Assembly: GCA_944472135.2 (NCBI GenBank)
Contig: OX235263.1
Location: 28,573,379-28,637,378 of the forward strand
Direction: 5' to 3'
From: Trichobilharzia regenti
Lineage: Eukaryota > Platyhelminthes > Trematoda > Strigeidida > Schistosomatidae
DNA length: 64,000 bases
Each line of letters opens with the position of its first letter. Position 1 is the first letter of the stretch. The position numbers and the translations under genes are program-made. Positions 8,090-63,664 of the stretch are shown here, piece by piece. Below the pieces are notes generated by a model. The model saw only the letters and a list, made by a program, of their open reading frames with translations, made no database searches and had not been told where the DNA came from.

Positions 8090-8091
8090 AA

Positions 8092-20590: not shown

Positions 20591-20605
20591 TTACTATCAT
20601 CATTA

Positions 20606-24641: not shown

Positions 24642-24920
24642 GTCAGCGGAATCAAAGAAAACTAGCTTAATAAAGAATAAGTTAGATGATTGCGATAGCT
24701 GTATATTTGGAAATGTACATAATTTTCACATGATATATGGAAAATTTGTGATGATGTGCACATATCAGAATGTCATCCTAAACATGTAACCACTTAACAG
24801 GGAAATATGAAGAATCAAACGATTGGATAGTAGTTTCTGAAAGGAAATGCAGCATGTTAAAGAAATGATTCGTCAAGGAATAGCTAGGCAACATATCAAT
24901 TTATCAAGTGATCGTTTGGA

Positions 24921-26134: not shown

Positions 26135-26667
26135 AGGGATAAAACCTTTCCAGTTAACTCAGTCAGTTTGTTTACGATGTCCCACTTTCTCAGAGAAGAC
26201 ATTTTTAATGCAAGCTGTAAATTCTTTTCAAATAACCTCATTCGTCGTGCTACGAGTGTTTTGTGACTGTTCATTTTTCTACTACTCCCTAGTAGTAAGT
26301 AGCCTAAGTGTATACACTGCTTAATATTTCTCTACCTCATCGGTATTAATGTTCTTTTCATAGAACTGAAACTCATTCACTTTTATGACACTATCATTTC
26401 TTCTGTGATGAAGTTATACTCCGCCACATTGTCTGAGCACTAGACTTTACTTAATGAGTCTCATTACGTAAATTAAGATTGTTTAGCTTATGCACTTATT
26501 TTCGTCTAACGAATAGTTTACCCTTGTTCAAAGTTAAGCTCGAGTGTTAGACTCTCTTTCACTTCGTGTAGTCTAACCAATTTCCCGCGTTCATTTCCAT
26601 TTGGAGTTCTGTCTGAATTTGTCAAATCCTACTTGAATCAATATAAGTCACATCAAATTGTACTTAC

Positions 26668-26743
26668 CTGCATCTCTTGCCTTGCTGAATATTTTGAATG
26701 CTTGAATAATAAACAAAAGTACACATTACTAATGCTTCATCAT
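26668..26743 (-). pseudogene. Dead MEG signal-peptide exon in array unit (first of 7 copies)
   Basis: On the minus strand, ATGATGAAGCAT is followed by TAG TAA and then a hydrophobic run (CVLLFIIQAFKIFSKARDA) ending GCAG|GTAAGT. It aligns residue for residue with the intact MEG first exon at 45766-45844 (CILLVIVQVFTITIKPSEA), including the phase-1 end and donor. The two adjacent stops (26731-26726) are in every copy: 28976-29051, 31284-31359, 33592-33667, 35898-35973, 38204-38279 and 40510-40585. Upstream, the ACGTGGC(A/T)AATGTAAATTAG block is shared with the intact gene, but its TATAAAT is not. Seen: homology and stops. Inferred: an inactivated MEG paralogue caught in the amplified unit. Confidence 0.75.
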
Positions 26744-38700: not shown

Positions 38701-41235
38701 AAGAAATGATTCGTCAAGGAATAGCTAGGCAACATATCAATTTATCAAGTGATCGTTTGGACAGATAAATTGGTCTGTTGTGAAGTTCGAAACTCTGACA
38801 GGTTTATTTGACAAGATTCTTTTGTTTCACAAGGCTTTGAGATGTCATTGTGAATGCCTGAATACGTCACCATGCGCAATTTTAACTGCGTCGTACACCT
38901 CTCAAATAATTGAAGGTCAACAAAATTGTGACTGAATAACTTCGCGTATCACCGTACAGAAAGTAAATCATTCACAAATCTCTCTGATTTGTGAGTTAAT
39001 GCACGTGAATTGACTCCCAACACCAAGCTTCTGGTTGCAAAACACTTTCTTCACTTCACCATTCCGATATAGTTTTCGTTATCAGCTTTCGCGGAACACG
39101 TCCGTTGACACTTTGATGCAGCATGTAGCACATCAGCAGATGATGTGGTCTATGTATTTGGATGTAATCGAAATTCACAATTAGATCATCACTTATGAGT
39201 GAACATGTACAACAAACACGAGTAGCTTTGTGATATAAGGATCAAACACCGGCTTGCTCAGTTAAACAGATGCGTAATCATATGAGGACTCTCTGTTGTT
39301 TAAGTCATCATGTTAGGCGAACCGACGCCATCTACTAACATATTTTCATTAAGAATCAACCCGCTTCTATGTAACATGCAGTTGAGTTGCCATAAACTTT
39401 GTTAAAATGTCTTCTTATGTTTTCTTTCAGTCTATGCTCGGTACTTTCACATCCACCAATCGCCCAATTATAATGCTATTTATTGACACCCTCGCTACAA
39501 TCACCCACATCCTCATTATGGAATCAGATTCCCTAAATTACAGAAGTCAAAGTTATGTAAACTGTAGACAATCCAAGAAAATCCTACATCCCATGAACAT
39601 ATCAAGTAGTGCCATAAATCTTCCCTCTTTAGTTACTAACGTATATGGGAGCTTTGTGAATAAGCGTAGTATCGGAAGTTCTACCAGTCACTTCTGATTT
39701 CCAGTGTTCACTTTCAGAAGGCAGAAGTGGTCGACACAAAATTAATGACGGTGAAATGTACTCTGAATCTTAAAAGCAATATCCAACTATATGATTGCCA
39801 ACGTGCTGTATTGTGACAACCTTCTGGTTGGTTGTTGGAGCTACTGCGTTCCATCGTCGAAGCTTCCATTATAGAAGCCAATATGTCAACATTGGCCAAG
39901 CATTTCGTTCCGTTTCACGAAAGAGCAGGTGAAAAATTGAACGAAAATCAAGACGTGTTTCCCGGCTAATGACTAAAGGGATAAAACCTCTCCGGTTAAC
40001 TCAGTCAGTTTGTTTACGATGTCCCACTTTCTCAGAGAAGACATTTTTAATGCAAGCTGTAAATTCTTTTCAAATAACCTCATTCGTCGTGTTACGAGTG
40101 TTTTGTGACTGTTCATTTTTCTACTACTCCCTAGTAGTAAGTAGCCTAAGTGTATACACTGCTTAATATTTCTCTACCTCATCGGTATTAATGTTCTTTT
40201 CATAGAACTGAAACTCATTCACTTTTATGACACGATCATTTCTTCTGTGATGAAGTTATACTCCGCCACATTGTCTGAGCACTAGACTTTACTTAATGAG
40301 TCTCATTACGCAAATTAAGATTGTTTAGCTTATGCACTTATTTTCGTCTAACGAATAGTTTACCCTTGTTCAAAGTTAAGCTCGAGTGTTAGACTCTCTT
40401 TCACTTCGTGTAGTCTAACCAATTTCCCGCGTTCATTTCCGTTTGGAGTTCTGTCTGAATTTGTCAAATCCTACTTGAATCAATATAAGTCACATCAAAT
40501 AGTACTTACCTGCTTCTCTAGCCTTGCTGAATATTGTGAACGCTTGAATAATAAACAAAAGTACACATTACTAATGCTTCATCATTCTACTTGGTATTGT
40601 GATCAGAGAAAGTAAACAGAAATCTATTCATTAGAATATTTCACCTAATTTACATTAGCCACGTGTAAGACCTTCAAGATTTCTAGAAATACCGCAAAAA
40701 TATCACCTCATTTGTTTCTGAAGGAATGTGGTGTGATTATAATTTAATTAAAAAAACACAAACAATTTTCTGCTTTTCTTCATTTATAAGGTCAGCGGAA
40801 TCAAAGAAAACTAGCTTAATAAAGAATAAGTTAGATGATTGCGATAGCTGTATATTTGGAAATGTACATAATTTTCACATGATATACGGAAAATTTGTGA
40901 TGATGTGCACATATCAGAATGTCATCCTAAACATGTAACCACTTAACAGGGAAATATGAAAAATCAAATGATTGGATAGTAGTTTCTGAAAGGAAATGCG
41001 ACATGTTAAAGAAATGATTCGTCAAGGAATAGCTAGGCAACATATCAATTTATCAAGTGATCGTTTGGACAGATAAATTGGTCTGTTGTGAAGTTCGAAA
41101 CTCTGACAGGTTTATTTGACAAGATTCTTTTGTTTCACAAGGCTTTGAGATGTCATTGTGAGTGCCTGAATACGTCACCAAGCACAATTTCAACTGCGTT
41201 GTACACCTCTCAAATAATTGAAAGCCAACAAAATT

Positions 41236-41320
41236 ATTTTATTTATTTATTTTTATTTTTGGTTACAGCTTGATTCCACACCGTATTTTTGGTACAAGTG
41301 TGGAATTTTCAGCGTGGATA
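41236..41320. repeat. AT-rich insertion in the eighth array unit
   Basis: After CAACAAAATTA the unit sequence GACTGAATAACTTCGCG is replaced by TTTTATTTATTTATTTTTATT followed by about 55 bp of unrelated sequence (GGTTACAGCTTGATTCCACA...), and the unit resumes at GTATCACCG. It accounts for the longer last period (2378 bp between equivalent frames). Confidence 0.7.
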
Positions 41321-44655: not shown

Positions 44656-45435
44656 ATTTGTTCATGAGCTTCATAACCATACCAAGACATCTGATGACTG
44701 ACTCTTCCCAACACTTATTTCTATATACGTAAATATCAGCTGTATATCTGGGTGAATCGAGTCAAAACGCATCACTTCTTCTTCTGTTTTCCTGGACGTC
44801 CATCGAACACGGCTTTCTCTCTCTTGACTTCATTCACTAGGCATGTGTGAAATGGCGTTTGGAAACTTGGAATCCAGGAGGAAACTTCAAAACATGTCTT
44901 ACTTAAGCCAACCACAGCGTCCAGTTATTTGTAATTTCAAATTATCTTTGTTCTGTTGGCCGAAAATCTGTTTTGCAATCATAGTGATTCACACCATTAT
45001 TCACTCATTATCATGTCTCAAAAATTAATCGTGAATGCAAAGCTAAACAAGGCCTCAGCCTTTTAGCTATACACTTATGTATAATTTTGTAGGCAAAATC
45101 TAAAGCTTTTCCATGTCTATAAACTCTGTAACCATTGCATTCGCGGTTGATGTAATCGGTGGTATAATATCTTACTCATGTAAACCATCGCTGCAACTAG
45201 CAGTTAGTGTTTATGTTATGTATCTCGGAGACTACTTTAGGACGTATAAATGGATCAAAGACTCTGAAGTCTCAAAATAATTGCGGCGATTCACTTTTGT
45301 TTCAAAAATCACTGTAATTTCTTAAAAAAACTGGTACTTTATTATGTCCATTTTCCCCGTAAGTACTACTTTCTCAGTATTTGTTAGTAATGCTTACGCG
45401 TTAGCGTTTCATGTTATTAACGGCAATCTGATATG
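44656..45435. other. No gene seen
   Basis: AT-rich DNA between repeat B and the MEG promoter region; no convincing frame or repeat. Confidence 0.35.
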
Positions 45436-45765
45436 TGCAAATCATCACACATTTTCCATATATCGTGCAAAAATTATGTACAGCCCTGAATATACAGCGA
45501 TTGGAATCACCTAACTTATTCTTTATTAAGCTATTATTCTTTGATTCCGGTGACCTTATAAATGAAGAAAAGCAAAAAATTGCTTGTATTTATAATTAAA
45601 ATTATATTTACGGCACATTCCTTCATAATTATATGGGGTGATACTTTGAAGTATATTTAGAATTCTAGAAGGTCCTATACGTGGCAAATGTAAATTAGCT
45701 GAAATCTATTGGTCACAGGACTATATAAATACTGGTTTTTCATTTATTCAACAAATACTATAACG
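45436..45765 (+). promoter_or_regulatory. MEG promoter region, homologous to array-1 unit in reverse
   Basis: This stretch is, on the plus strand, a diverged match to the minus strand of the array-1 unit: ATGTACA..., CTTATTCTTTATTAAGCTA, TTTGATTCCG.TGACCTTATAAATGAAGAAAAGCA, then ACGTGGCAAATGTAAATTAG. It contains a TATA box at 45722-45729 (TATATAAA), 37 bp before the ATG. If transcription starts about 30 bp downstream of it, the 5' UTR is only about 10-15 bases unless a spliced leader is used. Confidence 0.6.
45722..45729 (+). promoter_or_regulatory. TATA box of the MEG
   Basis: TATATAAA within GGACTATATAAATACTGG. The corresponding position in the seven dead array-1 copies lacks it (TTCTAATGAATAGATTTCTG on the same strand sense). 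Confidence 0.55.
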
Positions 45766-45844
45766 ATGACGACGAAGAACATGTTTTGTATCCTGTTGGT
45801 AATTGTTCAAGTGTTCACAATAACTATCAAGCCAAGTGAAGCAG
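45766..45844 (+). CDS. MEG exon 1: signal peptide
   Basis: 79 nt: 26 codons plus one base (phase 1). The peptide has a short charged n-region (MTTKNMF), a hydrophobic core (CILLVIVQVFTITI) and KPSEA at the likely cleavage site. The donor is GCAG|GTAAGC. This ATG is the first after the TATA box; no upstream ATG intervenes. Confidence 0.8.
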
Positions 45845-48800
45845 GTAAGCAAAATTTGAGGTGATTAACTATAATTATTATCATTATTATTGATGATAAT
45901 ATTATTGTTTCAAGTAAGATTTGACATATTCAGAGCAGTTCTGTCCCATTAGCATATCACATTTATTTATCAGTTTACTTAAATAACAATGATGTAAAAG
46001 TTAAATTGATTTAAATTAGTTATTTTAACCTGTGAAATTTGAGATTACACACATGTATTTCTGATCAATTCTATGAAATTGATTGATTACAAAAACAGCA
46101 GTCAGTGTAGACATTAGGAACATGTAGACGGAAACACTTGAAGATAAACTCACAATACTCCACTGACTGACGGAAACTTCATGAATGCACACAGTCATAG
46201 ACATAAACACATATGTATGAACCTTGATCACAGACCGAATACAAATTTCTTCACAATAGCCAATTTGTCAACCAATGCATACCGTGATATTTTATAGTGT
46301 TAACCACTAAAACTGTGTAGAAGAGGGCGTAATGCAATTAAAATCGTTTGATATCATTTACTGGACATTAAAATTTAACACAAAATAGGTGAAGAAGACA
46401 TGCTTAAGTGCACAAATAACACTGTTCATGATCATGCATTTAACTCCTAATAACATTTGGTGTACTATGAAATAAAAGAGAAAATATGAAGCCTTGTTAA
46501 GTAGATTCGAAGTGACATTCATTACAACGAATGATGAATTGATGAAAACCTCTAGCCTAAAGAATATAACTGGTCTCTTGACAGTGTATATATATATGGT
46601 AATTAGGAATTCAAATCGTCGACACATTTGAAAAAGATCAGTGATTAATCACAGCAAAAACCAATTAAAATAAATCAAAACAAAATTCACCAGCGAGTAT
46701 TATATAAAACATGATGAATAAAATTCATAGGAACGAGAAAAAAAGATATAACAAAAGCACAGAAAACAAACCGTTGAAAAACCAGGCATCAAGGAAAGCT
46801 CCAAAAGAAAAAAAACACAAGAACAAAAAAAACCATGAGCAGAGAAAAAACAGAATTTCACATCCGACATCATGACGGATATGATTGTGATCACCACATA
46901 ACTCTTGTATTCGCTTCCACTCAAAAGTCACGTCCCGTATATTTTCTAAACAATTCGCATATCTATTTGTTTTCTTCCACAAGTGAATATAGACGAGGGC
47001 GAGACGCTATATGGTGAGTATTAAAATATGAAATCTACCGTCGTCATAAAATTGTGAAATATGAAAGTCACACATCTATAAAGATTAACGTGAATAAGCG
47101 AAATCTAACATTGAAAGATTGCTTATATTTATTTATAGGAGTGAAGAATATCTACCACACCGAATGCATTACTCAAGGTGAGAAGGAAGAAATCTTTTCC
47201 ACTGTTCACCTTTACCCATAGTCTGAAGGCAAATGTGCGATATCAGTGAGCGGAAATGCTGAGTGCTTTCCGTGAAATCTGACCTGTGATAATTAGTTGG
47301 ACAATATGTGTGAGGAGAAAGTCAGGTGCTCATGTGTGGAGCAGACTAGTGACGTGAGGCTGAAAATGCGAATGGAAATGTGTGTGAGCATCATGGATGA
47401 CACACAGGCTCACATGCAATTTAAAATGTAAGTATATGAATGTTGTGGATTCAGGTGAATATCCAGACCATGTGAAAGGAAGACAGTTCATGTGTATTGC
47501 CGAGGCACGAGCAAGAAACATAGACGGTTTTGTGTGTTCCACATTGGTGTGAGGGACTGTGACAAATCTGGCAGTCACTGTGGAAGTCATATTCCGACTC
47601 TGGTGCTATTTAAGATACTGTTTATTTTCAATCTCTTTCATTTCAGTGAAGAAAAATATTGTTGAAGAAACAACAACACAAAGTGAGTTTTGTGAGTACG
47701 TGAATTTATTCGACTTGACGTGAGACAACACCCTCGTCTCTTTAATTCAGACTCAGTCAGATTATCTTGATGATCTGCGAAGTGCATATTTGAAGCTTAT
47801 CACTTCAGTGGTGTGACAACTGATCAGACGTCTGTCCTATATCTCTTCTGACAGATCTGCCAGCCACCGAACCCACAAAACCAGAAAAAGTTGAAGAAAA
47901 AACACCAACGAGTAAGACCTTTCAAATACTGATTGACACTGCTTAAATTGCATTTCTACTATGTAGAACCACTTCGTGTCACATTTCATACTCCATCCGA
48001 GGTGTATTAGGATTCGTGCAGTTAGGCTCAATTCGATGAGGCTATACGAATGGATTGTGTGAAGGACTTTCGAGCCAATCGGAACAATGCACAACATGAG
48101 ATACGTGTTTCAATTCTCCTCCTGCACAGCCGACAGTCACCATCTCCACGAAAGTGTAGACAGAGACTGAGTGCCTGTCACTGCTTTTCACATATTCTCG
48201 ACAACAACGTCAACGCGTCTCCTTCCACGTGCTCATTTGCATCGGAACAACATTGTCACAGATGTCGGATATTCACTCTTCACCATTCCACATTTGTCGA
48301 TTTCGTCACCCGCTCATTGAGTGAGAGGTGCAGGTGGCATCTCCATATTCACGGCCACTTCTGATATGAAAGTCACTCTGCGTCTTTGTTGTGTAGTTCT
48401 CATGGGCTTCATATTGTCGTGACCATCCCACTGTGTCAATCTCCTTATCAAGTGTGGCTACAAATTTCGTGGTGTGCATAGCGATTCCACAAAGATTTCG
48501 TCAGTTTCTGAGCTGGTGCACACTGTGCTTGTCTGAATCATTTCGTGGAAGGGACACACGCTGCGCCGTTAACGGGACACCTGAACTCTCAGTAGACTGG
48601 AATGCAGGCGATTTGTGGAAGTCGATACGGTGGAGACTGGAATTCAAGTGCAACAACCACTCGGTGTGAGCAGAGACCAGCGTTGCATCGCTCAGTCTGC
48701 ATACTGTCATACATGGTTGTGATCACTGATTAACTGTCGTGTTCGTCTCCACTCAAACGTCACGTCCCGTATATTTTCTAACGAATTCGCACCTATCTTT

Positions 48801-51800
48801 GGTTTCCCCCACTAGTGAACGTCGATGAGGAAGAGGTGATCTTTGGTGAGCCTTACAATCTGAAATTTATCGTATTCGAGATTTTGTGACGTGAATTCTG
48901 CATGTCATACATCTATAAAAATACAATGAATAGCGTATTCTAACACTCGAGGATTGGTTTCTCTTATTTTCAGGGGTGACGAACATTTATCCTAGCAAGT
49001 GCTATAATAAAGGTGAGAAGGAAGAAATCTTTTCCACTGTTCACCTTTACCCATAGTCTGAAGGCAAATGTGCGATATCAGTGAGTGGAAATGCTGAGTG
49101 CTTTCCGTGAAATCTGACCTGTGATAATTAGTTGGACAATATGTGTGAGGAGAAAGTCAGGTGCTCATGTGTGGAGCAGACTAGTGACGTGAGGCTGAAA
49201 ATGCGAATGGAAATGTGTGTGAGCATCATGGATGACACACAGGCTCACATGCAATTTAAAATGTGAGTATATGAATGTTGTGGATTCAGGTGAATATCCA
49301 GACCATGTGAAAGGAAGACAGTTCATGTGTGTTGCCGAGGTACGAGCAAGAAACATAGACGGTTTTGTGTGTTCCACATTGGTGTGAGGGACTGTGACAA
49401 ATCTGGCAGTCACTGTGGAAGTCATATTCCGACTCTGGTGCTATTTAAGATACTGTTTATTTTCAATCTCTTTCATTTCAGTGAAGAAAAATATTGTTGA
49501 AGAAACAACAACACAAAGTGAGTTTTGTGAGTACGTGAATTTATTCGACTTGACGTGAGACAACACCCTCGTCTCTTTAATTCAGACTCAGTCAGATTAT
49601 CTTGATGATCTGCGAAGTGCATATTTGAAGCTTATCACTTCAGTGGTGTGACAACTGATCAGACGTCTGTCCTATTTCTCTTCTGACAGATCTGCCAGCC
49701 ACCGAACCCACAAAACCAGAAAAAGTTGAAGAAAAAACACCAACGAGTAAGACCTTTCAAATACTGATTGACACTGCTAAATCGCATTTCTACTATGTAG
49801 AACCACTTCGTGTCACATTTCATACTCCATCCGAGGTGTATTAGGATTCGTGCAGTTAGGCTCAATTCGATGAGGCTATACGAATGGATTGTGTGAAGGA
49901 CTTTCGAGCCAATCGGAACAATGCACAACATGAGATACGTGTTTCAATTCTCCTCCTGCACAGCCGACAGTCACCATCTCCACGAAAGTGTAGACAGAGA
50001 CTGAGTGCCTGTCACTGCTTTTCACATATTCTCGACAACAACGTCAACGCGTCTCCTTCCACGTGCTCATTTGCATCGGAACAACATTGTCACAGATGTC
50101 GGATATTCACTCTTCACCATTCCACATTTGTCGATTTCGTCACCCGCTCATTGAGTGAGAGGTGCAGGTGGCATCTCCATATTCACGGCCACTTCTGATA
50201 TGAAAGTCACTCTGCGTCTTTGTTGTGTAGTTCTCATGGGCTTCATATTGTCGTGACCATCCCACTGTGTCAATCTCCTTATCAAGTGTGGCTACAAATT
50301 TCGTGGTGTGCATAGCGATTCCACAAAGATTTCGTCAGTTTCTGAGCTGATGCACACTGTGCTTGTCTGAATCATTTCGTGGAAGGGACACACGCTGCGC
50401 CGTTAACGGGACACCTGAACTCTCAGTAGACTGGAATGCAGGCGATTTGTGGAAGTCGATACGGTGGAGACTGGAATTCAAGTGCAACAACCACTCGGTG
50501 TGAGCAGAGACCAGCGTTGCATCGCTCAGTCTGCATACTGTCATACATGGTTGTGATCACTGATTAACTGTCGTGTTCGTCTCCACTCAAACGTCACGTC
50601 CCGTATATTTTCTAACGAATTCGCACCTATCTTTGGTTTCCCCCACTAGTGAACGTCGATGAGGAAGAGGTGATCTTTGGTGAGCCTTACAATCTGAAAT
50701 TTATCGTATTCGAGATTTTGTGACGTGAATTCTGCATGTCATACATCTATAAAAATACAATGAATAGCGTATTCTAACACTCGAGGATTGGTTTCTCTTA
50801 TTTTCAGGGGTGACGAACATTTATCCTAGCAAGTGCTATAATAAAGGTGAGAAGGAAGAAATCTTTTCCACTGTTCACCTTTACCCATAGTCTGAAGGCA
50901 AATGTGCGATATCAGTGAGCGGAAATGCTGAGTGCTTTCCGTGAAATCTGACCTGTGATAATTAGTTGGACAATATGTGTGAGGAGAAAGTCAGGTGCTC
51001 GTGTGTGGAGCAGACTAGTGACGTGAGGCTGAAAATGCGAATGGAAATGTGTGTGAGCATCATGGATGACACACAGGCTCACATGCAATTTAAAATGTGA
51101 GTATATGAATGTTGTGGATTCAGGTGAATATCCAGACCATGTGAAAGGAAGACAGTTCATGTGTATTGCCGAGGCACGAGCAAGAAACATAGACGGTTTT
51201 GTGTGTTCCACATTGGTGTGAGGGACTGTGACAAATCTGGCAGTCACTGTGGAAGTCATATTCCGACTCTGGTGCTATTTAAGATACTGTTTATTTTCAA
51301 TCTCTTTCATTTCAGTGAAGAAAAATATTGTTGAAGAAACAACAACACAAAGTGAGTTTTGTGAGTACGTGAATTTATTCGACTTGACGTGAGACAACAC
51401 CCTCGTCTCTTTAATTCAGACTCAGTCAGATTATCTTGATGATCTGCGAAGTGCATATTTGAAGCTTATCACTTCAGTGGTGTGACAACTGATCAGACGT
51501 CTGTCCTATTTCTCTTCTGACAGATCTGCCAGCCACCGAACCCACAAAACCAGAAAAAGTTGAAGAAAAAACACCTACGGGTAAGACCTTTCAAATACTG
51601 ATTGACACTGCTTAAATTGCATTTCTACTATGTAGAACCACTTCGTGTCACATTTCATACTCCATCCGAGGTGTATTAGGATTCGTGCAGTTAGGCTCAA
51701 TTCGATGAGGCTATACGAATGGATTGTGTGAAGGACTTTCGAGCCAATCGGAACAATGCACAACATGAGATACGTGTTTCAATTCTCCTCCTGCACAGCC

Positions 51801-54800
51801 GACAGTCACCATCTCCACGAAAGTGTAGACAGAGACTGAGTGCCTGTCACTGCTTTTCACATATTCTCGACAACAACGTCAACGCGTCTCCTTCCACGTG
51901 CTCATTTGCATCGGAACAACATTGTCACAGATGTCGGATATTCACTCTTCACCATTCCACATTTGTCGATTTCGTCACCCGCTCATTGAGTGAGAGGTGC
52001 AGGTGGCATCTCCATATTCACGGCCACTTCTGATATGAAAGTCACTCTGCGTCTTTGTTGTGTAGTTCTCATGGGCTTCATATTGTCGTGACCATCCCAC
52101 TGTGTCAATCTCCTTATCAAGTGTGGCTACAAATTTCGTGGTGTGCATAGCGATTCCACAAAGATTTCGTCAGTTTCTGAGCTGATGCAAACAAAACAAA
52201 AGCACAAAACAAAACAAAAGCACAAAAACAAAAGCACAAACAAACAAACCGTTGAATAACCAGGCATCAAGGAAAGCTCCAAAAGAAAAGAAACACAAGA
52301 ACAAAAATACCATGAGCAGAGAAAAAACAGAATTTCACATCCGACATCATGACGGATATGATTGTGATCACCGCATATCTCTTGTATTCGCTTCCACTCA
52401 AAAGTCACGTCCCGTATATTTTCTAAACAATTCGCATATCTATTTGTTTTCTTCCACAAGTGAATATAGACGAGGGCGAGACGCTATATGGTGAGTATTA
52501 AAATATGAAATCTACCGTCGTCATAAAATTGTGAAATATGAAAGTCACACATCTATAAAGATTAACGTGAATAAGCGAAATCTAACATTGAAAGATTGCT
52601 TATATTTATTTATAGGAGTGAAGAATATCTACCACACCGAATGCATTACTCAAGGTGAGAAGGAAGAAATCTTTTCCACTGTTCACCTTTACCCATAGTC
52701 TGAAGGCAAATGTGCGATATCAGTGAGCGGAAATGCTGAGTGCTTTCCGTGAAATCTGACCTGTGATAATTAGTTGGACAATATGTGTGAGGAGAAAGTC
52801 AGGTGCTCGTGTGTGGAGCAGACTAGTGACGTGAGGCTGAAAATGCGAATGGAAATGTGTGTGAGCATCATGGATGACACACAGGCTCACATGCAATTTA
52901 AAATGTGAGTATATGAATGTTGTGGATTCAGGTGAATATCCAGACCATGTGAAAGGAAGACAGTTCATGTGTGTTGCCGAGGTACGAGCAAGAAACATAG
53001 ACGGTTTTGTGTGTTCCACATTGGTGTGAGGGACTGTGACAAATCTGGCAGTCACTGTGGAAGTCATATTCCGACTCTGGTGCTATTTAAGATACTGTTT
53101 ATTTTCAATCTCTTTCATTTCAGTGAAGAAAAATATTGTTGAAGAAACAACAACACAAAGTGAGTTTTGTGAGTACGTGAATTTATTCGACTTGACGTGA
53201 GACAACACCCTCGTCTCTTTAATTCAGACTCAGTCAGATTATCTTGATGATCTGCGAAGTGCATATTTGAAGCTTATCACTTCAGTGGTGTGACAACTGA
53301 TCAGACGTCTGTCCTATTTCTCTTCTGACAGATCTGCCAGCCACCGAACCCACAAAACCAGAAAAAGTTGAAGAAAAAACACCAACGAGTAAGACCTTTC
53401 AAATACTGATTGACACTGCTAAAATCGCATTTCTACTATGTAGAACCACTTCGTGTCACATTTCATACTCCATCCGAGGTGTATTAGGATTCGTGCAGTT
53501 AGGCTCAATTCGATGAGGCTATACGAATGGATTGTGTGAAGGACTTTCGAGCCAATCGGAACAATGCACAACATGAGATACGTGTTTCAATTCTCCTCCT
53601 GCACAGCCGACAGTCACCATCTCCACGAAAGTGTAGACAGAGACTGAGTGCCTGTCACTGCTTTTCACATATTCTCGACAACAACGTCAACGCGTCTCCT
53701 TCCACGTGCTCATTTGCATCGGAACAACATTGTCACAGATGTCGGATATTCACTCTTCACCATTCCACATTTGTCGATTTCGTCACCCGCTCATTGAGTG
53801 AGAGGTGCAGGTGGCATCTCCATATTCACGGCCACTTCTGATATGAAAGTCACTCTGCGTCTTTGTTGTGTAGTTCTCATGGGCTTCATATTGTCGTGAC
53901 CATCCCACTGTGTCAATCTCCTTATCAAGTGTGGCTACAAATTTCGTGGTGTGCATAGCGATTCCACAAAGATTTCGTCAGTTTCTGAGCTGATGCACAC
54001 TGTGCTTGTCTGAATCATTTCGTGGAAGGGACACACGCTGCGCCGTTAACGGGACACCTGAACTCTCAGTAGACTGGAATGCAGGCGATTTGTGGAAGTC
54101 GATACGGTGGAGACTGGAATTCAAGTGCAACAACCACTCGGTGTGAGCAGAGACCAGCGTTGCATCGCTCAGTCTGCATACTGTCATACATGGTTGTGAT
54201 CACTGATTAACTGTCGTGTTCGTCTCCACTCAAACGTCACGTCCCGTATATTTTCTAACGAATTCGCACCTATCTTTGGTTTCCCCCACTAGTGAACGTC
54301 GATGAGGAAGAGGTGATCTTTGGTGAGCCTTACAATCTGAAATTTATCGTATTCGAGATTTTGTGACGTGAATTCTGCATGTCATACATCTATAAAAATA
54401 CAATGAATAGCGTATTCTAACACTCGAGGATTGGTTTCTCTTATTTTCAGGGGTGACGAACATTTATCCTAGCAAGTGCTATAATAAAGGTGAGAAGGAA
54501 GAAATCTTTTCCACTGTTCACCTTTACCCATAGTCTGAAGGCAAATGTGCGATATCAGTGAGCGGAAATGCTGAGTGCTTTCCGTGAAATCTGACCTGTG
54601 ATAATTAGTTGGACAATATGTGTGAGGAGAAAGTCAGGTGCTCGTGTGTGGAGCAGACTAGTGACGTGAGGCTGAAAATGCGAATGGAAATGTGTGTGAG
54701 CATCATGGATGACACACAGGCTCACATGCAATTTAAAATGTGAGTATATGAATGTTGTGGATTCAGGTGAATATCCAGACCATGTGAAAGGAAGACAGTT

Positions 54801-57800
54801 CATGTGTGTTGCCGAGGCACGAGCAAGAAACATAGACGGTTTTGTGTGTTCCACATTGGTGTGAGGGACTGTGACAAATCTGGCAGTCACTGTGGAAGTC
54901 ATATTCCGACTCTGGTGCTATTTAAGATACTGTTTATTTTCAATCTCTTTCATTTCAGTGAAGAAAAATATTGTTGAAGAAACAACAACACAAAGTGAGT
55001 TTTGTGAGTACGTGAATTTATTCGACTTGACGTGAGACAACACCCTCGTCTCTTTAATTCAGACTCAGTCAGATTATCTTGATGATCTGCGAAGTGCATA
55101 TTTGAAGCTTATCACTTCAGTGGTGTGACAACTGATCAGACGTCTGTCCTATTTCTCTTCTGACAGATCTGCCAGCCACCGAACCCACAAAACCAGAAAA
55201 AGTTGAAGAAAAAACACCAACGAGTAAGACCTTTCAAATACTGATTGACACTGCTAAAATCGCATTTCTACTATGTAGAACCACTTCGTGTCACATTTCA
55301 TACTCCATCCGAGGTGTATTAGGATTCGTGCAGTTAGGCTCAATTCGATGAGGCTATACGAATGGATTGTGTGAAGGACTTTCGAGCCAATCGGAACAAT
55401 GCACAACATGAGATACGTGTTTCATTTCTCCTCCTGCACAGCCGACAGTCACCATCTCCACGAAAGTGTAGACAGAGACTGAGTGCCTGTCACTGCTTTT
55501 CACATATTCTCGACAACAACGTCAACGCGTCTCCTTCCACGTGCTCATTTGCATCGGAACAACATTGTCACAGATGTCGGATATTCACTCTTCACCATTC
55601 CACATTTGTCGATTTCGTCACCCGCTCATTGAGTGAGAGGTGCAGGTGGCATCTCCATATTCACGGCCACTTCTGATATGAAAGTCACTCTGCGTCTTTG
55701 TTGTGTAGTTCTCATGGGCTTCATATTGTCGTGACCATCCCACTGTGTCAATCTCCTTATCAAGTGTGGCTACAAATTTCGTGGTGTGCATAGCGATTCC
55801 ACAAAGATTTCGTCAGTTTCTGAGCTGATGCACACTGTGCTTGTCTGAATCATTTCGTGGAAGGGACACACGCTGCGCCGTTAACGGGACACCTGAACTC
55901 TCAGTAGACTGGAATGCAGGCGATTTGTGGAAGTCGATACGGTGAAGACTGGAATTCAAGTGCAACAACCACTCGGTGTGAGCAGAGACCAGCGTTGCAT
56001 CGCTCAGTCTGCATACTGTCATACATGGTTGTGATCACTGATTAACTGTCGTGTTCGTCTCCACTCAAACGTCACGTCCCGTATATTTTCTAACGAATTC
56101 GCACCTATCTTTGGTTTCCCCCACTAGTGAACGTCGATGAGGAAGAGGTGATCTTTGGTGAGCCTTACAATCTGAAATTTATCGTATTCGAGATTTTGTG
56201 ACGTGAATTCTGCATGTCATACATCTATAAAAATACAATGAATAGCGTATTCTAACACTCGAGGATTGGTTTCTCTTATTTTCAGGGGTGACGAACATTT
56301 ATCCTAGCAAGTGCTATAATAAAGGTGAGAAGGAAGAAATCTTTTCCACTGTTCACCTTTACCCATAGTCTGAAGGCAAATGTGCGATATCAGTGAGCGG
56401 AAATGCTGAGTGCTTTCCGTGAAATCTGACCTGTGATAATTAGTTGGACAATATGTGTGAGGAGAAAGTCAGGTGCTCGTGTGTGGAGCAGACTAGTGAC
56501 GTGAGGCTGAAAATGCGAATGGAAATGTGTGTGAGCATCATGGATGACACACAGGCTCACATGCAATTTAAAATGTGAGTATATGAATGTTGTGGATTCA
56601 GGTGAATATCCAGACCATGTGAAAGGAAGACAGTTCATGTGTGTTGCCGAGGCACGAGCAAGAAACATAGACGGTTTTGTGTGTTCCACATTGGTGTGAG
56701 GGACTGTGACAAATCTGGCAGTCACTGTGGAAGTCATATTCCGACTCTGGTGCTATTTAAGATACTGTTTATTTTCAATCTCTTTCATTTCAGTGAAGAA
56801 AAATATTGTTGAAGAAACAACAACACAAAGTGAGTTTTGTGAGTACGTGAATTTATTCGACTTGACGTGAGACAACACCCTCGTCTCTTTAATTCAGACT
56901 CAGTCAGATTATCTTGATGATCTGCGAAGTGCATATTTGAAGCTTATCACTTCAGTGGTGTGACAACTGATCAGACGTCTGTCCTATTTCTCTTCTGACA
57001 GATCTGCCAGCCACCGAACCCACAAAACCAGAAAAAGTTGAAGAAAAAACACCAACGAGTAAGACCTTTCAAATACTGATTGACACTGCTTAAATCGCAT
57101 TTCTACTATGTAGAACCACTTCGTGTCACATTTCATACTCCATCCGAGGTGTATTAGGATTCGTGCAGTTAGGCTCAATTCGATGAGGCTATACGAATGG
57201 ATTGTGTGAAGGACTTTCGAGCCAATCGGAACAATGCACAACATGAGATACGTGTTTCATTTCTCCTCCTGCACAGCCGACAGTCACCATCTCCACGAAA
57301 GTGTAGACAGAGACTGAGTGCCTGTCACTGCTTTTCACATATTCTCGACAACAACGTCAACGCGTCTCCTTCCACGTGCTCATTTGCATCGGAACAACAT
57401 TGTCACAGATGTCGGATATTCACTCTTCACCATTCCACATTTGTCGATTTCGTCACCCGCTCATTGAGTGAGAGGTGCAGGTGGCATCTCCATATTCACG
57501 GCCACTTCTGATATGAAAGTCACTCTGCGTCTTTGTTGTGTAGTTCTCATGGGCTTCATATTGTCGTGACCATCCCACTGTGTCAATCTCCTTATCAAGT
57601 GTGGCTACAAATTTCGTGGTGTGCATAGCGATTCCACAAAGATTTCGTCAGTTTCTGAGCTGATGCACACTGTGCTTGTCTGAATCATTTCGTGGAAGGG
57701 ACACACGCTGCGCCGTTAACGGGACACCTGAACTCTCAGTAGACTGGAATGCAGGCGATTTGTGGAAGTCGATACGGTGAAGACTGGAATTCAAGTGCAA

Positions 57801-60800
57801 CAACCACTCGGTGTGAGCAGAGACCAGCGTTGCATCGCTCAGTCTGCATACTGTCATACATGGTTGTGATCACTGATTAACTGTCGTGTTCGTCTCCACT
57901 CAAACGTCACGTCCCGTATATTTTCTAACGAATTCGCACCTATCTTTGGTTTCCCCCACTAGTGAACGTCGATGAGGAAGAGGTGATCTTTGGTGAGCCT
58001 TACAATCTGAAATTTATCGTATTCGAGATTTTGTGACGTGAATTCTGCATGTCATACATCTATAAAAATACAATGAATAGCGTATTCTAACACTCGAGGA
58101 TTGGTTTCTCTTATTTTCAGGGGTGACGAACATTTATCCTAGCAAGTGCTATAATAAAGGTGAGAAGGAAGAAATCTTTTCCACTGTTCACCTTTACCCA
58201 TAGTCTGAAGGCAAATGTGCGATATCAGTGAGCGGAAATGCTGAGTGCTTTCCGTGAAATCTGACCTGTGATAATTAGTTGGACAATATGTGTGAGGAGA
58301 AAGTCAGGTGCTCGTGTGTGGAGCAGACTAGTGACGTGAGGCTGAAAATGCGAATGGAAATGTGTGTGAGCATCATGGATGACACACAGGCTCACATGCA
58401 ATTTAAAATGTGAGTATATGAATGTTGTGGATTCAGGTGAATATCCAGACCATGTGAAAGGAAGACAGTTCATGTGTATTGCCGAGGCACGAGCAAGAAA
58501 CATAGACGGTTTTGTGTGTTCCACATTGGTGTGAGGGACTGTGACAAATCTGGCAGTCACTGTGGAAGTCATATTCCGACTCTGGTGCTATTTAAGATAC
58601 TGTTTATTTTCAATCTCTTTCATTTCAGTGAAGAAAAATATTGTTGAAGAAACAACAACACAAAGTGAGTTTTGTGAGTACGTGAATTTATTCGACTTGA
58701 CGTGAGACAACACCCTCGTCTCTTTAATTCAGACTCAGTCAGATTATCTTGATGATCTGCGAAGTGCATATTTGAAGCTTATCACTTCAGTGGTGTGACA
58801 ACTGATCAGACGTCTGTCCTATTTCTCTTCTGACAGATCTGCCAGCCACCGAACCCACAAAACCAGAAAAAGTTGAAGAAAAAACACCAACGAGTAAGAC
58901 CTTTCAAATACTGATTGACACTGCTTAAATCGCATTTCTACTATGTAGAACCACTTCGTGTCACATTTCATACTCCATCCGAGGTGTATTAGGATTCGTG
59001 CAGTTAGGCTCAATTCGATGAGGCTATACGAATGGATTGTGTGAAGGACTTTCGAGCCAATCGGAACAATGCACAACATGAGATACGTGTTTCAATTCTC
59101 CTCCTGCACAGCCGACAGTCACCATCTCCACGAAAGTGTAGACAGAGACTGAGTGCCTGTCACTGCTTTTCACATATTCTCGACAACAACGTCAACGCGT
59201 CTCCTTCCACGTGCTCATTTGCATCGGAACAACATTGTCACAGATGTCGGATATTCACTCTTCACCATTCCACATTTGTCGATTTCGTCACCCGCTCATT
59301 GAGTGAGAGGTGCAGGTGGCATCTCCATATTCACGGCCACTTCTGATATGAAAGTCACTCTGCGTCTTTGTTGTGTAGTTCTCATGGGCTTCATATTGTC
59401 GTGACCATCCCACTGTGTCAATCTCCTTATCAAGTGTGGCTACAAATTTCGTGGTGTGCATAGCGATTCCACAAAGATTTCGTCAGTTTCTGAGCTGATG
59501 CACACTGTGCTTGTCTGAATCATTTCGTGGAAGGGACACACGCTGCGCCGTTAACGGGACACCTGAACTCTCAGTAGACTGGAATGCAGGCGATTTGTGG
59601 AAGTCGATACGGTGAAGACTGGAATTCAAGTGCAACAACCACTCGGTGTGAGCAGAGACCAGCGTTGCATCGCTCAGTCTGCATACTGTCATACATGGTT
59701 GTGATCACTGATTAACTGTCGTGTTCGTCTCCACTCAAACGTCACGTCCCGTATATTTTCTAACGAATTCGCACCTATCTTTGGTTTCCCCCACTAGTGA
59801 ACGTCGATGAGGAAGAGGTGATCTTTGGTGGGCCTTACAATCTGAAATTTATCGTATTCGAGATTTTGTGACGTGAATTCTGCATGTCATACATCTATAA
59901 AAATACAATGAATAGCGTATTCTAACACTCGAGGATTGGTTTCTCTTATTTTTAGGGGTGAAGAATTATTATCCTAGCAAGTGCTATAATAAAGGTGAGA
60001 AGGAAGAAATCTTTTCCACTGTTCACCTTTACCCATAGTCTGAAGGCAAATGTGCGATATCAGTGAGCGGAAATGCTGAGTGCTCTCCGTGAAATCTGAC
60101 CTGTGATAATTAGTTGGACAATATGTGTGAGGAGAAAGTCAGGTGCTCGTGTGTGGAGCAGACTAGTGACGTGAGGCTGAAAATGCGAATGGAATTGTGT
60201 GTGAGCATCATGGATGACACACAGGCTCACATGCAATTTAAAATGTGAGTATATGAATGTTGTGGATTCAGGTGAATATCCAGACCATGTGAAAGGAAGA
60301 CAGTTCATGTGTATTGCCGAGGCACGAGCAAGAAACATAGACGGTTTTGTGTGTTCCACATTGGTGTGAGGGACTGTGACAAATCTGGCAGTCACTGTGG
60401 AAGTCACATTCCGACTCTGGTGCTATTTAAGATACTGTTTATTTTCAATCTCTTTCATTTCAGTGAAGAAAAATATTGTTGAAGAAACAACAACACAAAG
60501 TGAGTTTTGTGAGTACGTGAATTTATTCGACTTGACGTGAGACAACACCCTCGTCTCTTTAATTCAGACTCAGTCAGATTATCTTGATGATCTGCGAAGT
60601 GCATATTTGAAGTTTATCACTTCAGTGGTGTGACAACTGATCAGACGTCTGTCCTATTTCTCTTCTGACTGATCTGCCAGCCACCGAACCCACAAAACCA
60701 GAAAAAGTTGAAGAAAAAACACCAACGAGTAAGACCTTTCAAATACTGATTGACACTGCTTAAATCGCATTTCTACTATGTAGAACCACTTCGTGTCACA

Positions 60801-63664
60801 TTTCATACTCCATCCGAGGTGTATTAGGATTCGTGCAGTTAGGCTCAATTCGATGAGGCTATACGAATGGATTGTGTGAAGGACTTTCGAGCCAATCGGA
60901 ACAATGCACAACATGAGATACGTGTTTCAATTCTCCTCCTGCACAGCCGACAGTCACCATCTCCACGAAAGTGTAGACAGAGACTGAGTGCCTGTCACTG
61001 CTTTTCACATATTCTCGACAACAACGTCAACGCGTCTCCTTCCACGTGCTCATTTGCATCGGAACAACATTGTCACAGATGTCGGATATTCACTCTTCAC
61101 CATTCCACATTTGTCGATTTCGTCACCCGCTCATTGAGTGAGAGGTGCAGGTGGCATCTCCATATTCACGGCCACTTCTGATATGAAAGTCACTCTGCGT
61201 CTTTGTTGTGTAGTTCTCATGGGCTTCATATTGTCGTGACCATCCCACTGTGTCAATCTCCTTATCAAGTGTGGCTACAAATTTCGTGGTGTGCATAGCG
61301 ATTCCACAAAGATTTCGTCAGTTTCTGAGCTGATGCACACTGTGCTTGTCTGAATCATTTCGTGGAAGGGACACACGCTGCGCCGTTAACGGGACACCTG
61401 AACTCTCAGTAGACTGGAATGCAGGCGATTTGTGGAAGTCGATACGGTGAAGACTGGAATTCAAGTGCAACAACCACTCGGTGTGAGCAGAGACCAGCGT
61501 TGCATCGCTCAGTCTGCATACTGTCATACATGGTTGTGATCACTGATTAACTGTCGTGTTCGTCTCCACTCAAACGTCACGTCCCGTATATTTTCTAACG
61601 AATTCGCACCTATCTTTGGTTTCCCCCACTAGTGAACGTCGATGAGGAAGAGGTGATCTTTGGTGGGCCTTACAATCTGAAATTTATCGTATTCGAGATT
61701 TTGTGACGTGAATTCTGCATGTCATACATCTATAAAAATACAATGAATAGCGTATTCTAACACTCGAGGATTGGTTTCTCTTATTTTTAGGGGTGAAGAA
61801 TTATTATCCTAGCAAGTGCTATAATAAAAGTGAGAAGGAAGAAATCTTTTCCACTGTTCACCTTTACCCATAGTCTGAAGGCAAATGTGCGATATCAGTG
61901 AGCGGAAATGCTGAGTGCTCTCCGTGAAATCTGACCTGTGATAATTAGTTGGACAATATGTGTGAGGAGAAAGTCAGGTGCTCGTGTGTGGAGCAGACTA
62001 GTGACGTGAGGCTGAAAATGCGAATGGAATTGTGTGTGAGCATCATGGATGACACACAGGCTCACATGCAATTTAAAATGTGAGTATATGAATATTGTGG
62101 ATTCAGGTGAATATCCAGACCATGTGAAAGGAAGACAGTTCATGTGTATTGCCGAGGCACGAGCAAGAAACATAGACGGTTTTGTGTGTTCCACATTGGT
62201 GTGAGGGACTGTGACAAATCTGGCAGTCACTGTGGAAGTCATATTCCGACTCTGGTGCTATTTAAGATACTGTTTATTTTCAATCTCTTTCATTTCAGTG
62301 AAGAAAAATATTGTTGAAGAAACAACAACACAAAGTGAGTTTTGTGAGTACGTGAATTTATTCGACTTGACGTGAGACAACACCCTCGTCTCTTTAATTC
62401 AGACTCAGTCAGATTATCTTGATGATCTGCGAAGTGCATATTTGAAGTTTATCACTTCAGTGGTGTGACAACTGATCAGACGTCTGTCCTATTTCTCTTC
62501 TGACAGATCTGCCAGCCACCGAACCCACAAAACCAGAAAAAGTTGAAGAAAAAACACCAACGAGTAAGACCTTTCAAATACTGATTGACACTGCTTAAAT
62601 CGCATTTCTACTATGTAGAACCACTTCGTGTCACATTTCATACTCCATCCGAGGTGTATTAGGATTCGTGCAGTTAGGCTCAATTCGATGAGGCTATACG
62701 AATGGATTGTGTGAAGGACTTTCGAGCCAATCGGAACAATGCACAACATGAGATACGTGTTTCAATTCTCCTCCTGCACAGCCGACAGTCACCATCTCCA
62801 CGAAAGTGTAGACAGAGACTGAGTGCCTGTCACTGCTTTTCACATATTCTCGACAACAACGTCAACGCGTCTCCTTCCACGTGCTCATTTGCATCGGAAC
62901 AACATTGTCACAGATGTCGGATATTCACTCTTCACCATTCCACATTTGTCGATTTCGTCACCCGCTCATTGAGTGAGAGGTGCAGGTGGCATCTCCATAT
63001 TCACGGCCACTTCTGATATGAAAGTCACTCTGCGTCTTTGTTGTGTAGTTCTCATGGGCTTCATATTGTCGTGACCATCCCACTGTGTCAATCTCCTTAT
63101 CAAGTGTGGCTACAAATTTCGTGGTGTGCATAGCGATTCCACAAAGATTTCGTCAGTTTCTGAGCTGATGCACACTGTGCTTGTCTGAATCATTTCGTGG
63201 AAGGGACACACGCTGCGCCGTTAACGGGACACCTGAACTCTCAGTAGACTGGAATGCAGGCGATTTGTGGAAGTCGATACGGTGGAGACTGGAATTCAAG
63301 TGCAACAACCACTCGGTGTGAGCAGAGACCAGCGTTGCATCGCTCAGTCTGCATACTGTCATACATGGTTGTGATCACTGATTAACTGTCGTGTTCGTCT
63401 CCACTCAAACGTCACGTCCCGTATATTTTCTAACGAATTCGCACCTATCTTTGGTTTCCCCCACTAGTGAACGTCGATGAGGAAGAGGTGATCTTTGGTG
63501 AGCCTTACAATCTGAAATTTATCGTATTCGAGATTTTGTGACGTGAATTCTGCATGTCATACATCTATAAAAATACAATGAATAGCGTATTCTAACACTC
63601 GAGGATTGGTTTCTCTTATTTTCAGGGGTGACGAACATTTATCCTAGCAAGTGCTATAATAAAG
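45766..63664 (+). CDS. Micro-exon gene (MEG-like) with tandem four-exon blocks; 3' end not identified
   Basis: A secreted, repeat-built protein. Exon 1 (45766-45844) encodes a signal peptide. It is followed by blocks of micro-exons of 30, 39, 36 and 57 nt, each flanked by AG and GT and all phase 1-1, so every junction keeps frame and any exon can be skipped. Nine full blocks plus exons 1-2 of a tenth are present: 39 exons, 1606 coding nt, at least 535 residues, with no stop in the joined frame. One block encodes about 54 residues: VN(I/V)DEEEV.., then GV(T/K)NIYPSKCYNK with the only Cys, then VKKNIVEETTTQ, then NLPATEPTKPEKVEEKTPT. The Thr/Glu/Lys/Pro-rich composition suggests a disordered, possibly O-glycosylated product. 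The architecture is that of schistosome MEGs (secreted from gland cells and eggs, variable by splicing; family knowledge). I cannot assign a MEG number. The joined transcript is inferred, not observed, and further micro-exons could be missed. Confidence 0.75.
45845..46983 (+). other. MEG intron 1
   Basis: About 1.14 kb between the signal exon and the first micro-exon. It holds TTATTA-rich runs near 45876-45905 and a TATATATATA run near 46590. The stretch from about 46745 to 46983 is closely repeated at 52195-52460 inside the array. The minus-strand frames here are hydrophobic shadows of AT-rich DNA. An additional micro-exon cannot be excluded. Confidence 0.6.
46984..47911 (+). CDS. MEG block 1 (exons 46984-47013, 47139-47177, 47647-47682, 47855-47911)
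   Basis: Founder-type block with distinct first exons: VNIDEGETLY and GVKNIYHTECITQ. Acceptors are CCACAAG, TTTATAG, TTTCAG and TGACAG; donors GTGAGT, GTGAGA, GTGAGT and GTAAGA. The 57-nt exon ends ACGA, so joined to block 2 it gives ATG across the junction. Confidence 0.75.
48816..49746 (+). CDS. MEG block 2 (exons 48816-48845, 48974-49012, 49482-49517, 49690-49746)
   Basis: Standard-type block: VNVDEEEVIF (first residue Met because of the preceding A), GVTNIYPSKCYNK, then the shared third and fourth exons. Acceptors CACTAG and TTTTCAG, donors GTGAGC and GTGAGA. Confidence 0.75.
50650..51580 (+). CDS. MEG block 3 (exons 50650-50679, 50808-50846, 51316-51351, 51524-51580)
   Basis: As block 2, except the 57-nt exon ends CCTACGG|GTAAGA instead of CCAACGA|GTAAGA. 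Its last base is therefore G and the next block begins with Val, matching the founder-type exon that follows. Confidence 0.75.
52461..53388 (+). CDS. MEG block 4, mosaic (exons 52461-52490, 52616-52654, 53124-53159, 53332-53388)
   Basis: The first two exons are identical in type to block 1 (VNIDEGETLY; GVKNIYHTECITQ) and so is the preceding intron back to about 52190. There the standard unit breaks off at GAGCTGATGCA and joins AACAAAACAAAAGCAC repeats. The third and fourth exons are of the shared type. This junction explains the 1808-bp spacing. Confidence 0.75.
54293..55223 (+). CDS. MEG block 5 (exons 54293-54322, 54451-54489, 54959-54994, 55167-55223)
   Basis: Standard type, all splice sites consensus. 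From here the following units keep an exact 1835-bp spacing. Confidence 0.75.
56128..57058 (+). CDS. MEG block 6 (exons 56128-56157, 56286-56324, 56794-56829, 57002-57058)
   Basis: Standard type. It shares with block 5 a few intron variants (for example TTTCATTTCTCC against TTTCAATTCTCC in the long intron before blocks 6 and 7), so neighbouring blocks share duplication history. Confidence 0.75.
57963..58893 (+). CDS. MEG block 7 (exons 57963-57992, 58121-58159, 58629-58664, 58837-58893)
   Basis: Standard type, splice sites intact. Confidence 0.75.
59798..60728 (+). CDS. MEG block 8, splice-altered (exons 59798-59827, 59956-59994, 60464-60499, 60672-60728)
   Basis: Differs from the standard in four places. 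The first donor is GTGGGC, not GTGAGC. The second exon encodes GVKNYYPSKCYNK after acceptor TTTTTAG. The fourth exon acceptor is TGACTG in place of TGACAG, so the normal AG is lost. The next AG (GCCAG, ending 60680) would give an exon nine bases shorter and still in frame; otherwise the exon is skipped, also in frame. Confidence 0.65.
61633..62563 (+). CDS. MEG block 9 (exons 61633-61662, 61791-61829, 62299-62334, 62507-62563)
   Basis: Shares with block 8 the GTGGGC donor and the GVKNYYPSKCYNK exon, but has the normal TGACAG acceptor for the fourth exon. The second exon ends AAAA|GTGAGA rather than AAAG|GTGAGA, which would change the first residue of the next exon from Val to Met. Confidence 0.7.
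63468..63664 (+). CDS. MEG block 10, first two exons only (63468-63497, 63626-63664)
   Basis: Standard-type exons with normal splice sites (GTGAGC, TTTTCAG). The unit is cut at about 63877, before the third and fourth exons, and unrelated AT-rich sequence follows. Either the gene resumes beyond the window or this block is the broken end of the array. Confidence 0.65.

What the first reader, a model, noticed from the sequence alone, without database searches (positions are those of the whole stretch)
45766..63664. A micro-exon gene grown by tandem duplication of a four-exon block, 39 exons visible
The 30/39/36/57-nt exons recur in the same order in ten blocks, all phase 1-1, with no stop when joined after a signal-peptide exon. 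The chance of 38 short AG-exon-GT segments all preserving frame is small. A secreted repeat protein of 54-residue units, each skippable, would generate very many length and sequence variants at a host interface. The combination of MEG exons and a genomic array of whole blocks seems unusual.
Basis: partly seen in the sequence, partly recalled or inferred. Interest (0 to 1): 0.9.

Follow-up and report, generated by a model that had tools for sequence, protein, structure and literature searches.

The report
Fluke secreted-protein gene with repeated micro-exons
A flatworm gene, probably of a bird schistosome and for a secreted protein, carries a block of four tiny exons copied about ten times over, which is a clear new example of a gene style already known in blood flukes.

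Summary
Exon 1 (45766-45844) encodes a signal peptide; ten blocks follow with exons of 30, 39, 36 and 57 nt (block 10 shows two), open in phase 1. Correction: 37 of 38 micro-exons have AG...GT; the 57-nt exon of block 8 lacks its acceptor. A splice-site scan of one block returns exactly its four exons; 1000 shuffles gave at most two. Support from outside: an uncharacterised Trichobilharzia regenti protein (375 aa, E 4e-111) has the same kind of signal peptide and six full 54-residue units. The window is most likely Trichobilharzia. Exons C and D and most intron sequence are near-identical between blocks, exons A and B come in two diverged types, and one intron is chimeric, pointing to unequal exchange. 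Splicing and expression were not tested. The design has precedents: S. mansoni MEG-4/10-3 and SmPoMuc. Most likely: a disordered secreted repeat protein whose length varies through block number and exon skipping (inferred). New member of a known kind. An inverted array of decayed promoter and signal-exon copies lies upstream.

The parts
45406..45765 (+). Upstream region with a TATA-like sequence at 45722, 44 nt before the ATG; presumed promoter
   Evidence: 45406-45864 recurs at about 75% identity in the inverted upstream array; TATA match (5 such matches on the + strand of the window)
45766..45844 (+). Exon 1, signal peptide (26 codons + 1 nt), donor GTAAGC
   Evidence: aligns to the T. regenti P0082 signal peptide
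46984..47911 (+). Block 1 (type I A and B): A 46984-47013, B 47139-47177, C 47647-47682, D 47855-47911
48816..49746 (+). Block 2 (type II): A 48816-48845, B 48974-49012, C 49482-49517, D 49690-49746
50650..51580 (+). Block 3 (type II): A 50650-50679, B 50808-50846, C 51316-51351, D 51524-51580 (D ends in a different base, changing the junction codon)
51581..52460 (+). Chimeric D3-A4 intron: first about 612 nt array-type, last about 234 nt like the end of intron 1, with an A-rich repeat between
52461..53388 (+). Block 4 (type I A and B): A 52461-52490, B 52616-52654, C 53124-53159, D 53332-53388
54293..55223 (+). Block 5 (type II)
56128..57058 (+). Block 6 (type II)
57963..58893 (+). Block 7 (type II)
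59798..60728 (+). Block 8 (type II, B variant); its D exon 60672-60728 lacks the AG acceptor
61633..62563 (+). Block 9 (type II, B variant as in block 8)
63468..63664 (+). Block 10: A 63468-63497 and B 63626-63664; similarity to the other blocks ends at about 63877
24467..41237 (-). Inverted upstream array, period 2306-2308: seven copies of a decayed promoter and signal-peptide exon (same two in-frame stops in 7 of 7; donor kept) and one partial promoter copy

Best explanation
This is a protein-coding micro-exon gene (MEG) of a schistosome, probably Trichobilharzia. SHOWN by sequence: one signal-peptide exon followed by ten visible tandem copies of a block whose four symmetric phase-1 micro-exons would encode a 54-residue unit, with a homologous repeat protein in T. 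regenti. SHOWN: copies of C, D and most of the introns are near-identical, A and B exist in two diverged types, and one intron is a recombinant of intron 1 and an inter-block intron. INFERRED: the array grows, shrinks and homogenises by unequal exchange and gene conversion, as proposed for SmPoMuc. INFERRED: the transcript is spliced across the blocks into a secreted, largely disordered acidic protein rich in Glu, Thr, Lys and Pro, with one cysteine per unit; because the micro-exons are symmetric, skipping any of them keeps the frame, and so would skipping the acceptor-less exon of block 8. INFERRED: the benefit is a long, multivalent, length-variable and probably O-glycosylated secretion at the host interface, by analogy with MEG-4.1 and MEG-14 of the oesophageal gland.
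For: Exon map and open phase; splice-site scan against shuffles and against the rest of the window; T. regenti P0082 with the same unit length and 27-31 of 54 residues identical per full unit; no in-frame stop in 37 single-exon or 703 contiguous skips; type I versus type II A+B (22 codons): synonymous 10.5 of 12.7, nonsynonymous 14.5 of 53.3 (Fisher p 0.0002-0.003 on rounded counts), as for a selected peptide; C+D peptides uniform across the window's blocks and across the T. regenti units but only 18 of 31 identical between the two, as if homogenised separately; chimeric intron; reverse transcriptase in the window 94% identical to a T. szidati protein over 64% of the query.
Against: No transcript or peptide was available, and the homologue is an uncharacterised database protein whose transcript support is unknown. 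The gene's 3' end is outside the window. Recent duplication alone would keep blocks alike, so identity of C and D copies is no evidence of selection. The synonymous difference (83%) is far above that of the A-B intron (32%), which simple purifying selection does not explain; the sites are few. The type I/II split is not mirrored in T. regenti: its first unit is no closer to type I (12 of 23 in A+B) than to type II (13 of 23). MEG-like function is analogy. AlphaFold on the single T. regenti sequence gave mean pLDDT 47, compatible with disorder but also usual for a single-sequence run.
Confidence: 0.88

Rival explanations
1. The array is a decaying, mostly non-functional amplification: the gene in use needs only the first block or two, and the other blocks are passengers, as in the inverted upstream array of broken signal exons.
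For: D8 has lost its acceptor; the neighbouring array carries a broken signal exon in 7 of 7 copies, so amplification of dead pieces does happen here; block identity can be explained by recency.
Against: 37 of 38 micro-exons keep both splice sites; T. regenti encodes six full units; all 703 ordered joins stay open.
Confidence: 0.12
2. The array serves length polymorphism at the DNA level (a coding VNTR), and alternative splicing contributes little. (Overlaps with the best explanation; differs in where variation arises.)
For: Near-identical blocks make exon choice largely a choice of length and order; the chimeric intron shows unequal exchange; T. regenti P0082 keeps all four exons' worth of residues in each of its six full units.
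Against: Symmetric exons and the MEG literature favour skipping; P0082 is one sequence of a cluster with 9 members, whose others were not seen. No second individual was available.
Confidence: 0.4
3. It is a member of MEG-4 or MEG-14, the known repeat-bearing oesophageal MEGs, diverged beyond recognition.
For: Same plan: signal peptide, then hydrophilic Thr/Pro-rich repeats.
Against: The T. regenti homologue has no hydrophobic stretch after the signal peptide (best 17-residue mean 0.11) and ends in a partial A-B unit, whereas MEG-4 has a conserved hydrophobic C-terminus and MEG-14 a membrane anchor; the printed MEG-4.1 repeat looks different, though no alignment was run; no MEG-4 or MEG-14 was returned by the two searches.
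Confidence: 0.07
4. The exon pattern is a chance product of a satellite-like repeat.
For: All blocks are copies, so one coincidence would be repeated.
Against: Shuffle test, rest-of-window control and the T. regenti protein.
Confidence: 0.01

Closest known systems
Schistosoma mansoni MEG-4.1 / antigen 10-3
   Same: Signal peptide, hydrophilic Thr/Pro-rich repeats; gene with 27-bp exons and 81-bp repeats (review passage in PMC4015677; [quoted passage not shown] that paper is not held)
   Different: Unit of 81 bases, in three 27-nt exons (three: recalled), against 162 bases in four exons of unlike length; MEG-4 has a conserved hydrophobic C-terminus that the T. regenti homologue of this gene lacks
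SmPoMuc polymorphic mucins of S. mansoni
   Same: Signal peptide followed by a genomic array (up to about 20) of units with introns over 93-94% alike and exon types that stay distinct; [quoted passage not shown]
   Different: One 27-bp exon per roughly 1-kb unit, 9-residue repeat, 15-exon gene with an intronic hammerhead ribozyme; no Rfam match at gathering threshold in this window, though the comparable 3' part lies outside it
S. mansoni MEG-26.2 and MEG-26.4
   Different: Two copies only; proteins with amphipathic helices
MEG-14
   Same: 26-residue signal peptide and a repeated, O-glycosylation-rich central region (passage of PMC3723592)
   Different: Membrane anchor at the C-terminus, absent from the T. 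regenti homologue
Trichobilharzia regenti A0AA85K6J0 (uncharacterised, P0082)
   Same: Similar signal peptide, a distinct first unit and then five near-uniform 54-residue units
   Different: Full units share only 27-31 of 54 residues with the window's; ends in a partial A-B unit with its own end, not seen in the window

Membership tests
Micro-exon gene (structural definition of PMC7653826: micro-exons under 70 nt and divisible by 3; at least 7 exons; at least half micro-exons; a run of at least 4) | Exon lengths, number and run | tested here: met
   38 of 39 predicted exons are under 70 nt and multiples of 3; definition seen in a passage. The exons are predicted, not from transcripts
Micro-exon gene | Signal peptide in the 5' exon | tested here: met
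   Best 17-residue mean hydropathy 2.34 from residue 5; similar signal peptide in P0082; no dedicated predictor was run
Micro-exon gene | Exon skipping seen in transcripts | not testable with these tools
   No cDNA available
MEG-4 | Conserved hydrophobic C-terminus of about 60 residues | tested here: not met
   Not met in the T. regenti homologue P0082; the window's own 3' end lies outside
MEG-4 | Thr/Pro-rich tandem repeats | tested here: met
   Thr 14.5% and Pro 8.2% of the mature model; analogous plan, not shown homology
MEG-14 | C-terminal membrane anchor | tested here: not met
   Best 17-residue mean hydropathy of mature P0082 is 0.11; the window's own 3' end lies outside
SmPoMuc | Array unit of about 1 kb with a single 27-bp exon | tested here: not met
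   Unit of 1835 nt with four exons
SmPoMuc | Intronic hammerhead ribozyme between exons 9 and 10 | tested here: inconclusive
   No Rfam match at gathering threshold in the window, but the 3' part of the gene is not in it
A known S. mansoni MEG family by sequence | Detectable protein similarity | tested here: inconclusive
   Two word-seeded searches returned nothing (267 candidates) and only the T. regenti protein (7993 candidates scored, a capped set); both limited by protein length

The most novel reading that the evidence does not exclude
The gene is a Trichobilharzia-specific length-variable secretion system: block number differs between worms by unequal exchange, two diverged A-B modules are reshuffled onto a constantly homogenised C-D module, and exon repetition or trans-splicing extends the protein further, as proposed for SmPoMuc.
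Probability: 0.3. Interest if true: 0.6.

Novelty: new member of a known kind. Interest (0 to 1): 0.42.

Why it matters
It gives an apparently well-resolved view of how a micro-exon gene can grow: whole blocks copied, most of the block near-identical, one module kept in two diverged forms, and a splice-site loss that need not break the frame because the exons are symmetric. Such genes are hard to see: PMC2576457 says the SmPoMuc repeats prevented assembly and PMC7653826 that MEGs challenge gene finding. This locus is a tractable case for asking whether block number varies between individual worms and whether length or sequence is what selection acts on.

Tried and rejected
Tandem Repeats Finder did not see the array because its longest period is 500. 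Rfam at gathering threshold gave nothing in the window. A text search for six peptide strings of the model found no paper. A first protein search with a two-block model (134 aa) found nothing at E up to 1 among 267 candidates; only proteins of about 74-234 aa are candidates there. The 516-residue model found the T. regenti protein. Pfam listed seven families for P0082 at E up to 1 (best 2.5e-05), none reaching its curated cut-off; the PDB gave none at E up to 0.1. The AlphaFold model (mean pLDDT 47.1) is too poor for a fold search, so none was run. I first took the upstream signal-exon copies to be frame-shifted; the alignment and translation showed that the frame is kept and two stops interrupt it. 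That exons vary more than introns among blocks (7 of 162 against 22 of 1673, p 0.011; one search had used 20 before a recount) is recorded but not leaned on: counts are by hand, leave out columns that merely separate type I from type II and the chimeric stretch, and adjacent changes may be one event. The type I/II test points the other way, to purifying selection, so I claim no positive selection; the type II against block 8 comparison (1 synonymous, 3 nonsynonymous) decides nothing. I looked for sign that the window's type I is the counterpart of T. regenti's distinct first unit and found none. Whether a T. regenti schistosomulum transcript annotated by a bacterial peptidase M26 hit (Table 2 of PMC4749378) is this gene is an untested guess.

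Papers: passages only of PMC4350168, PMC7653826, PMC5825161, PMC4671649, PMC2576457, PMC4015677, PMC3961193, PMC3723592, PMC4749378 and PMC13219023; passages and one whole section of PMC6362228; parts 1 and 2 of 5 of PMC10526429; others in search listings only. DeMarco 2010 (PMC2909574) and Davis 1988 (PMC365566) are not held. Searches for prior description; no listed result or passage seen described this locus, but lists were capped and most subscription papers are not held.
Full report
What is there. Exon 1 (45766-45844, + strand) begins with ATG, encodes 26 codons plus one base, has a hydrophobic core (best 17-residue mean 2.34) and ends at a strong donor. A TATA-like sequence lies 44 nt upstream of the ATG. 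Ten blocks follow, nine complete, with exons A (30 nt), B (39), C (36) and D (57); block 10 shows A and B, after which similarity to the other blocks ends at about 63877. The start-to-start spacing is 1835 in seven of nine steps, with one of 1834 and one of 1808.

Is it more than chance. Every micro-exon is a multiple of three and is open when entered in phase 1; in the blocks printed (1, 2 and part of 8) each exon type has a stop in at least one other phase. None of 703 ordered junctions among exon 1 and the 37 canonical micro-exons creates a stop. Since blocks are copies, the fair test is one block: at thresholds equal to the weakest of its four exons, the scan of block 3 returns these four and nothing else on + and nothing on -; 1000 dinucleotide shuffles gave 0 (959), 1 (40) or 2 (1). 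With the same thresholds the array yields 23 hits, all of them reader exons, with 15 of the 38 falling below threshold, against one hit on each strand of positions 1-45000. The weights are recalled approximations.

One exon is not as described. D8 (60672-60728) has no AG before it, so 37 of 38 micro-exons have both canonical sites. Because the exons are symmetric, skipping it would keep the frame.

Homologue and source. The 516-residue model found one protein at E up to 10 among 7993 scored candidates (a capped set): P0082, an uncharacterised T. regenti protein of 375 aa (UniRef A0AA85K6J0; cluster of 9 sequences), E 4.4e-111. Cut into 54s after the signal peptide it gives a distinct first unit, five units that differ from each other by one residue at most, and a partial A-B unit at its end. 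Each full unit shares 27-31 of 54 residues with the window's units. The shared unit length and order support the predicted borders. A reverse transcriptase elsewhere in the window has its best matches in T. szidati (78% over 74%, 94% over 64%) and T. regenti (56% over 97%). The window is therefore most likely Trichobilharzia and not T. regenti; T. szidati is a guess. The genome search did not complete, so the assembly itself was not consulted.

How the array evolved. Blocks 1 and 4 carry one form of A and B (type I), the other eight another (type II). Between block 1 and the type II consensus the difference is 21% in the last 104 nt before A, 37% in A, 32% in the A-B intron and 36% in B, and then 0.4% in the B-C intron, 0 in C, 0.6% in the C-D intron, 0 in D and 0.4% in the aligned D-A intron: the change of regime falls at the end of exon B. 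Type I/II differences in A+B are mostly synonymous for their opportunity (10.5 of 12.7 against 14.5 of 53.3; p 0.0002-0.003 on rounded counts), as for a selected peptide; but that synonymous figure is well above the intron's 32%, which I cannot explain, and the sites are few. The chance that as many random changes leave no stop is 0.42, so openness alone says little. The intron before block 4 is a chimera of an inter-block intron and the end of intron 1, joined in an A-rich stretch. Variants are shared in patches (blocks 8 and 9; 5 and 6; 1 and 3; 2 and 4). C and D peptides are uniform within the window, nearly so in T. regenti, and 18 of 31 identical between them. Unequal exchange and conversion, separately in each species, explain this best; direction and dates are inferred, and no tree was built. 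The two types of the window are not matched one to one in T. regenti: its first unit shares 12 of 23 A+B residues with type I and 13 with type II.

What it probably does. The mature model is acidic (pI 4.8), rich in Glu, Thr, Lys and Pro, with one Cys per unit, no N-glycosylation sequon and no second hydrophobic stretch in the visible part; P0082 is alike (pI 4.2, 7 Cys, no sequon). The single-sequence model of P0082 has mean pLDDT 47. I infer a secreted, mostly disordered repeat protein, probably O-glycosylated (no predictor was run). Host-interface secretion is by analogy with MEGs expressed in the oesophageal gland. A study of T. szidati and T. regenti found 10 and 4 MEG transcripts, some not closely related to S. 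mansoni MEGs; whether this gene is among them is unknown.

What exon choice could add. All 37 single-exon skips and 703 contiguous skips stay free of stops. The 37 give 37 distinct proteins in 4 lengths; the 703 give 601 distinct proteins in 163 lengths. The building pieces are few: 2 A, 3 B, 1 C, 1 D by whole internal codons.

Comparison. By structure it meets a published MEG definition. It works like MEG-4/10-3 and SmPoMuc, which already combine tiny exons with tandem repeats in the gene, but its T. regenti homologue lacks the C-terminal feature of MEG-4 and MEG-14, and its unit is not that of SmPoMuc. No Schistosoma relative was found in two searches of limited reach. Verdict: a real, well-supported new member of a known kind, with a larger block than the precedents I could read about.

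Neighbourhood. Upstream, 24467-41237 on the - strand is a second tandem array (period 2306-2308). Seven units hold a copy of the promoter region and signal exon, 68-72% identical to the T. regenti signal peptide but with the same two in-frame stops in 7 of 7. No A-D exons were found there by tblastn with P0082 or with the 53-residue unit, nor by the splice-site scan of one unit. It shows that dead pieces of this gene family are amplified too, which is the best argument for the rival that part of the exon array is passenger DNA.

Noticed in passing
window 24467-41237 (-): Tandem array of about 2.3-kb units with seven decayed copies of a promoter and signal-peptide exon, closer to T. regenti's signal peptide (72% in five copies, 68% in two) than the live exon 1 is (62.5%); all seven share two in-frame stops.
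   Followed up: partly
window 1-4248: Direct repeat of about 2.05 kb (99.3%), each copy with a gag-like ORF; the first matches DUF7083, the second was not scanned.
   Followed up: no
window 8766-13428 (-): LINE-like remains: reverse transcriptase at 9299-10042 (best relatives in Trichobilharzia) and endonuclease at 10684-11472; the other ORFs were not scanned.
   Followed up: partly
window 7186-8822: Inverted repeat (99.6% over 735 nt) with ORFs on both strands, unexplained; the ORF at 8224-8688 had no Pfam match.
   Followed up: no
window 17244-20912 and 43449-44652: Dispersed repeat shared between the two places at 92-94%, the second copy lying between the two arrays.
   Followed up: no
window 4604-5706 and 19495-20597: Direct repeat of 1103 nt, 99.4% identical, nature unknown.
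   Followed up: no
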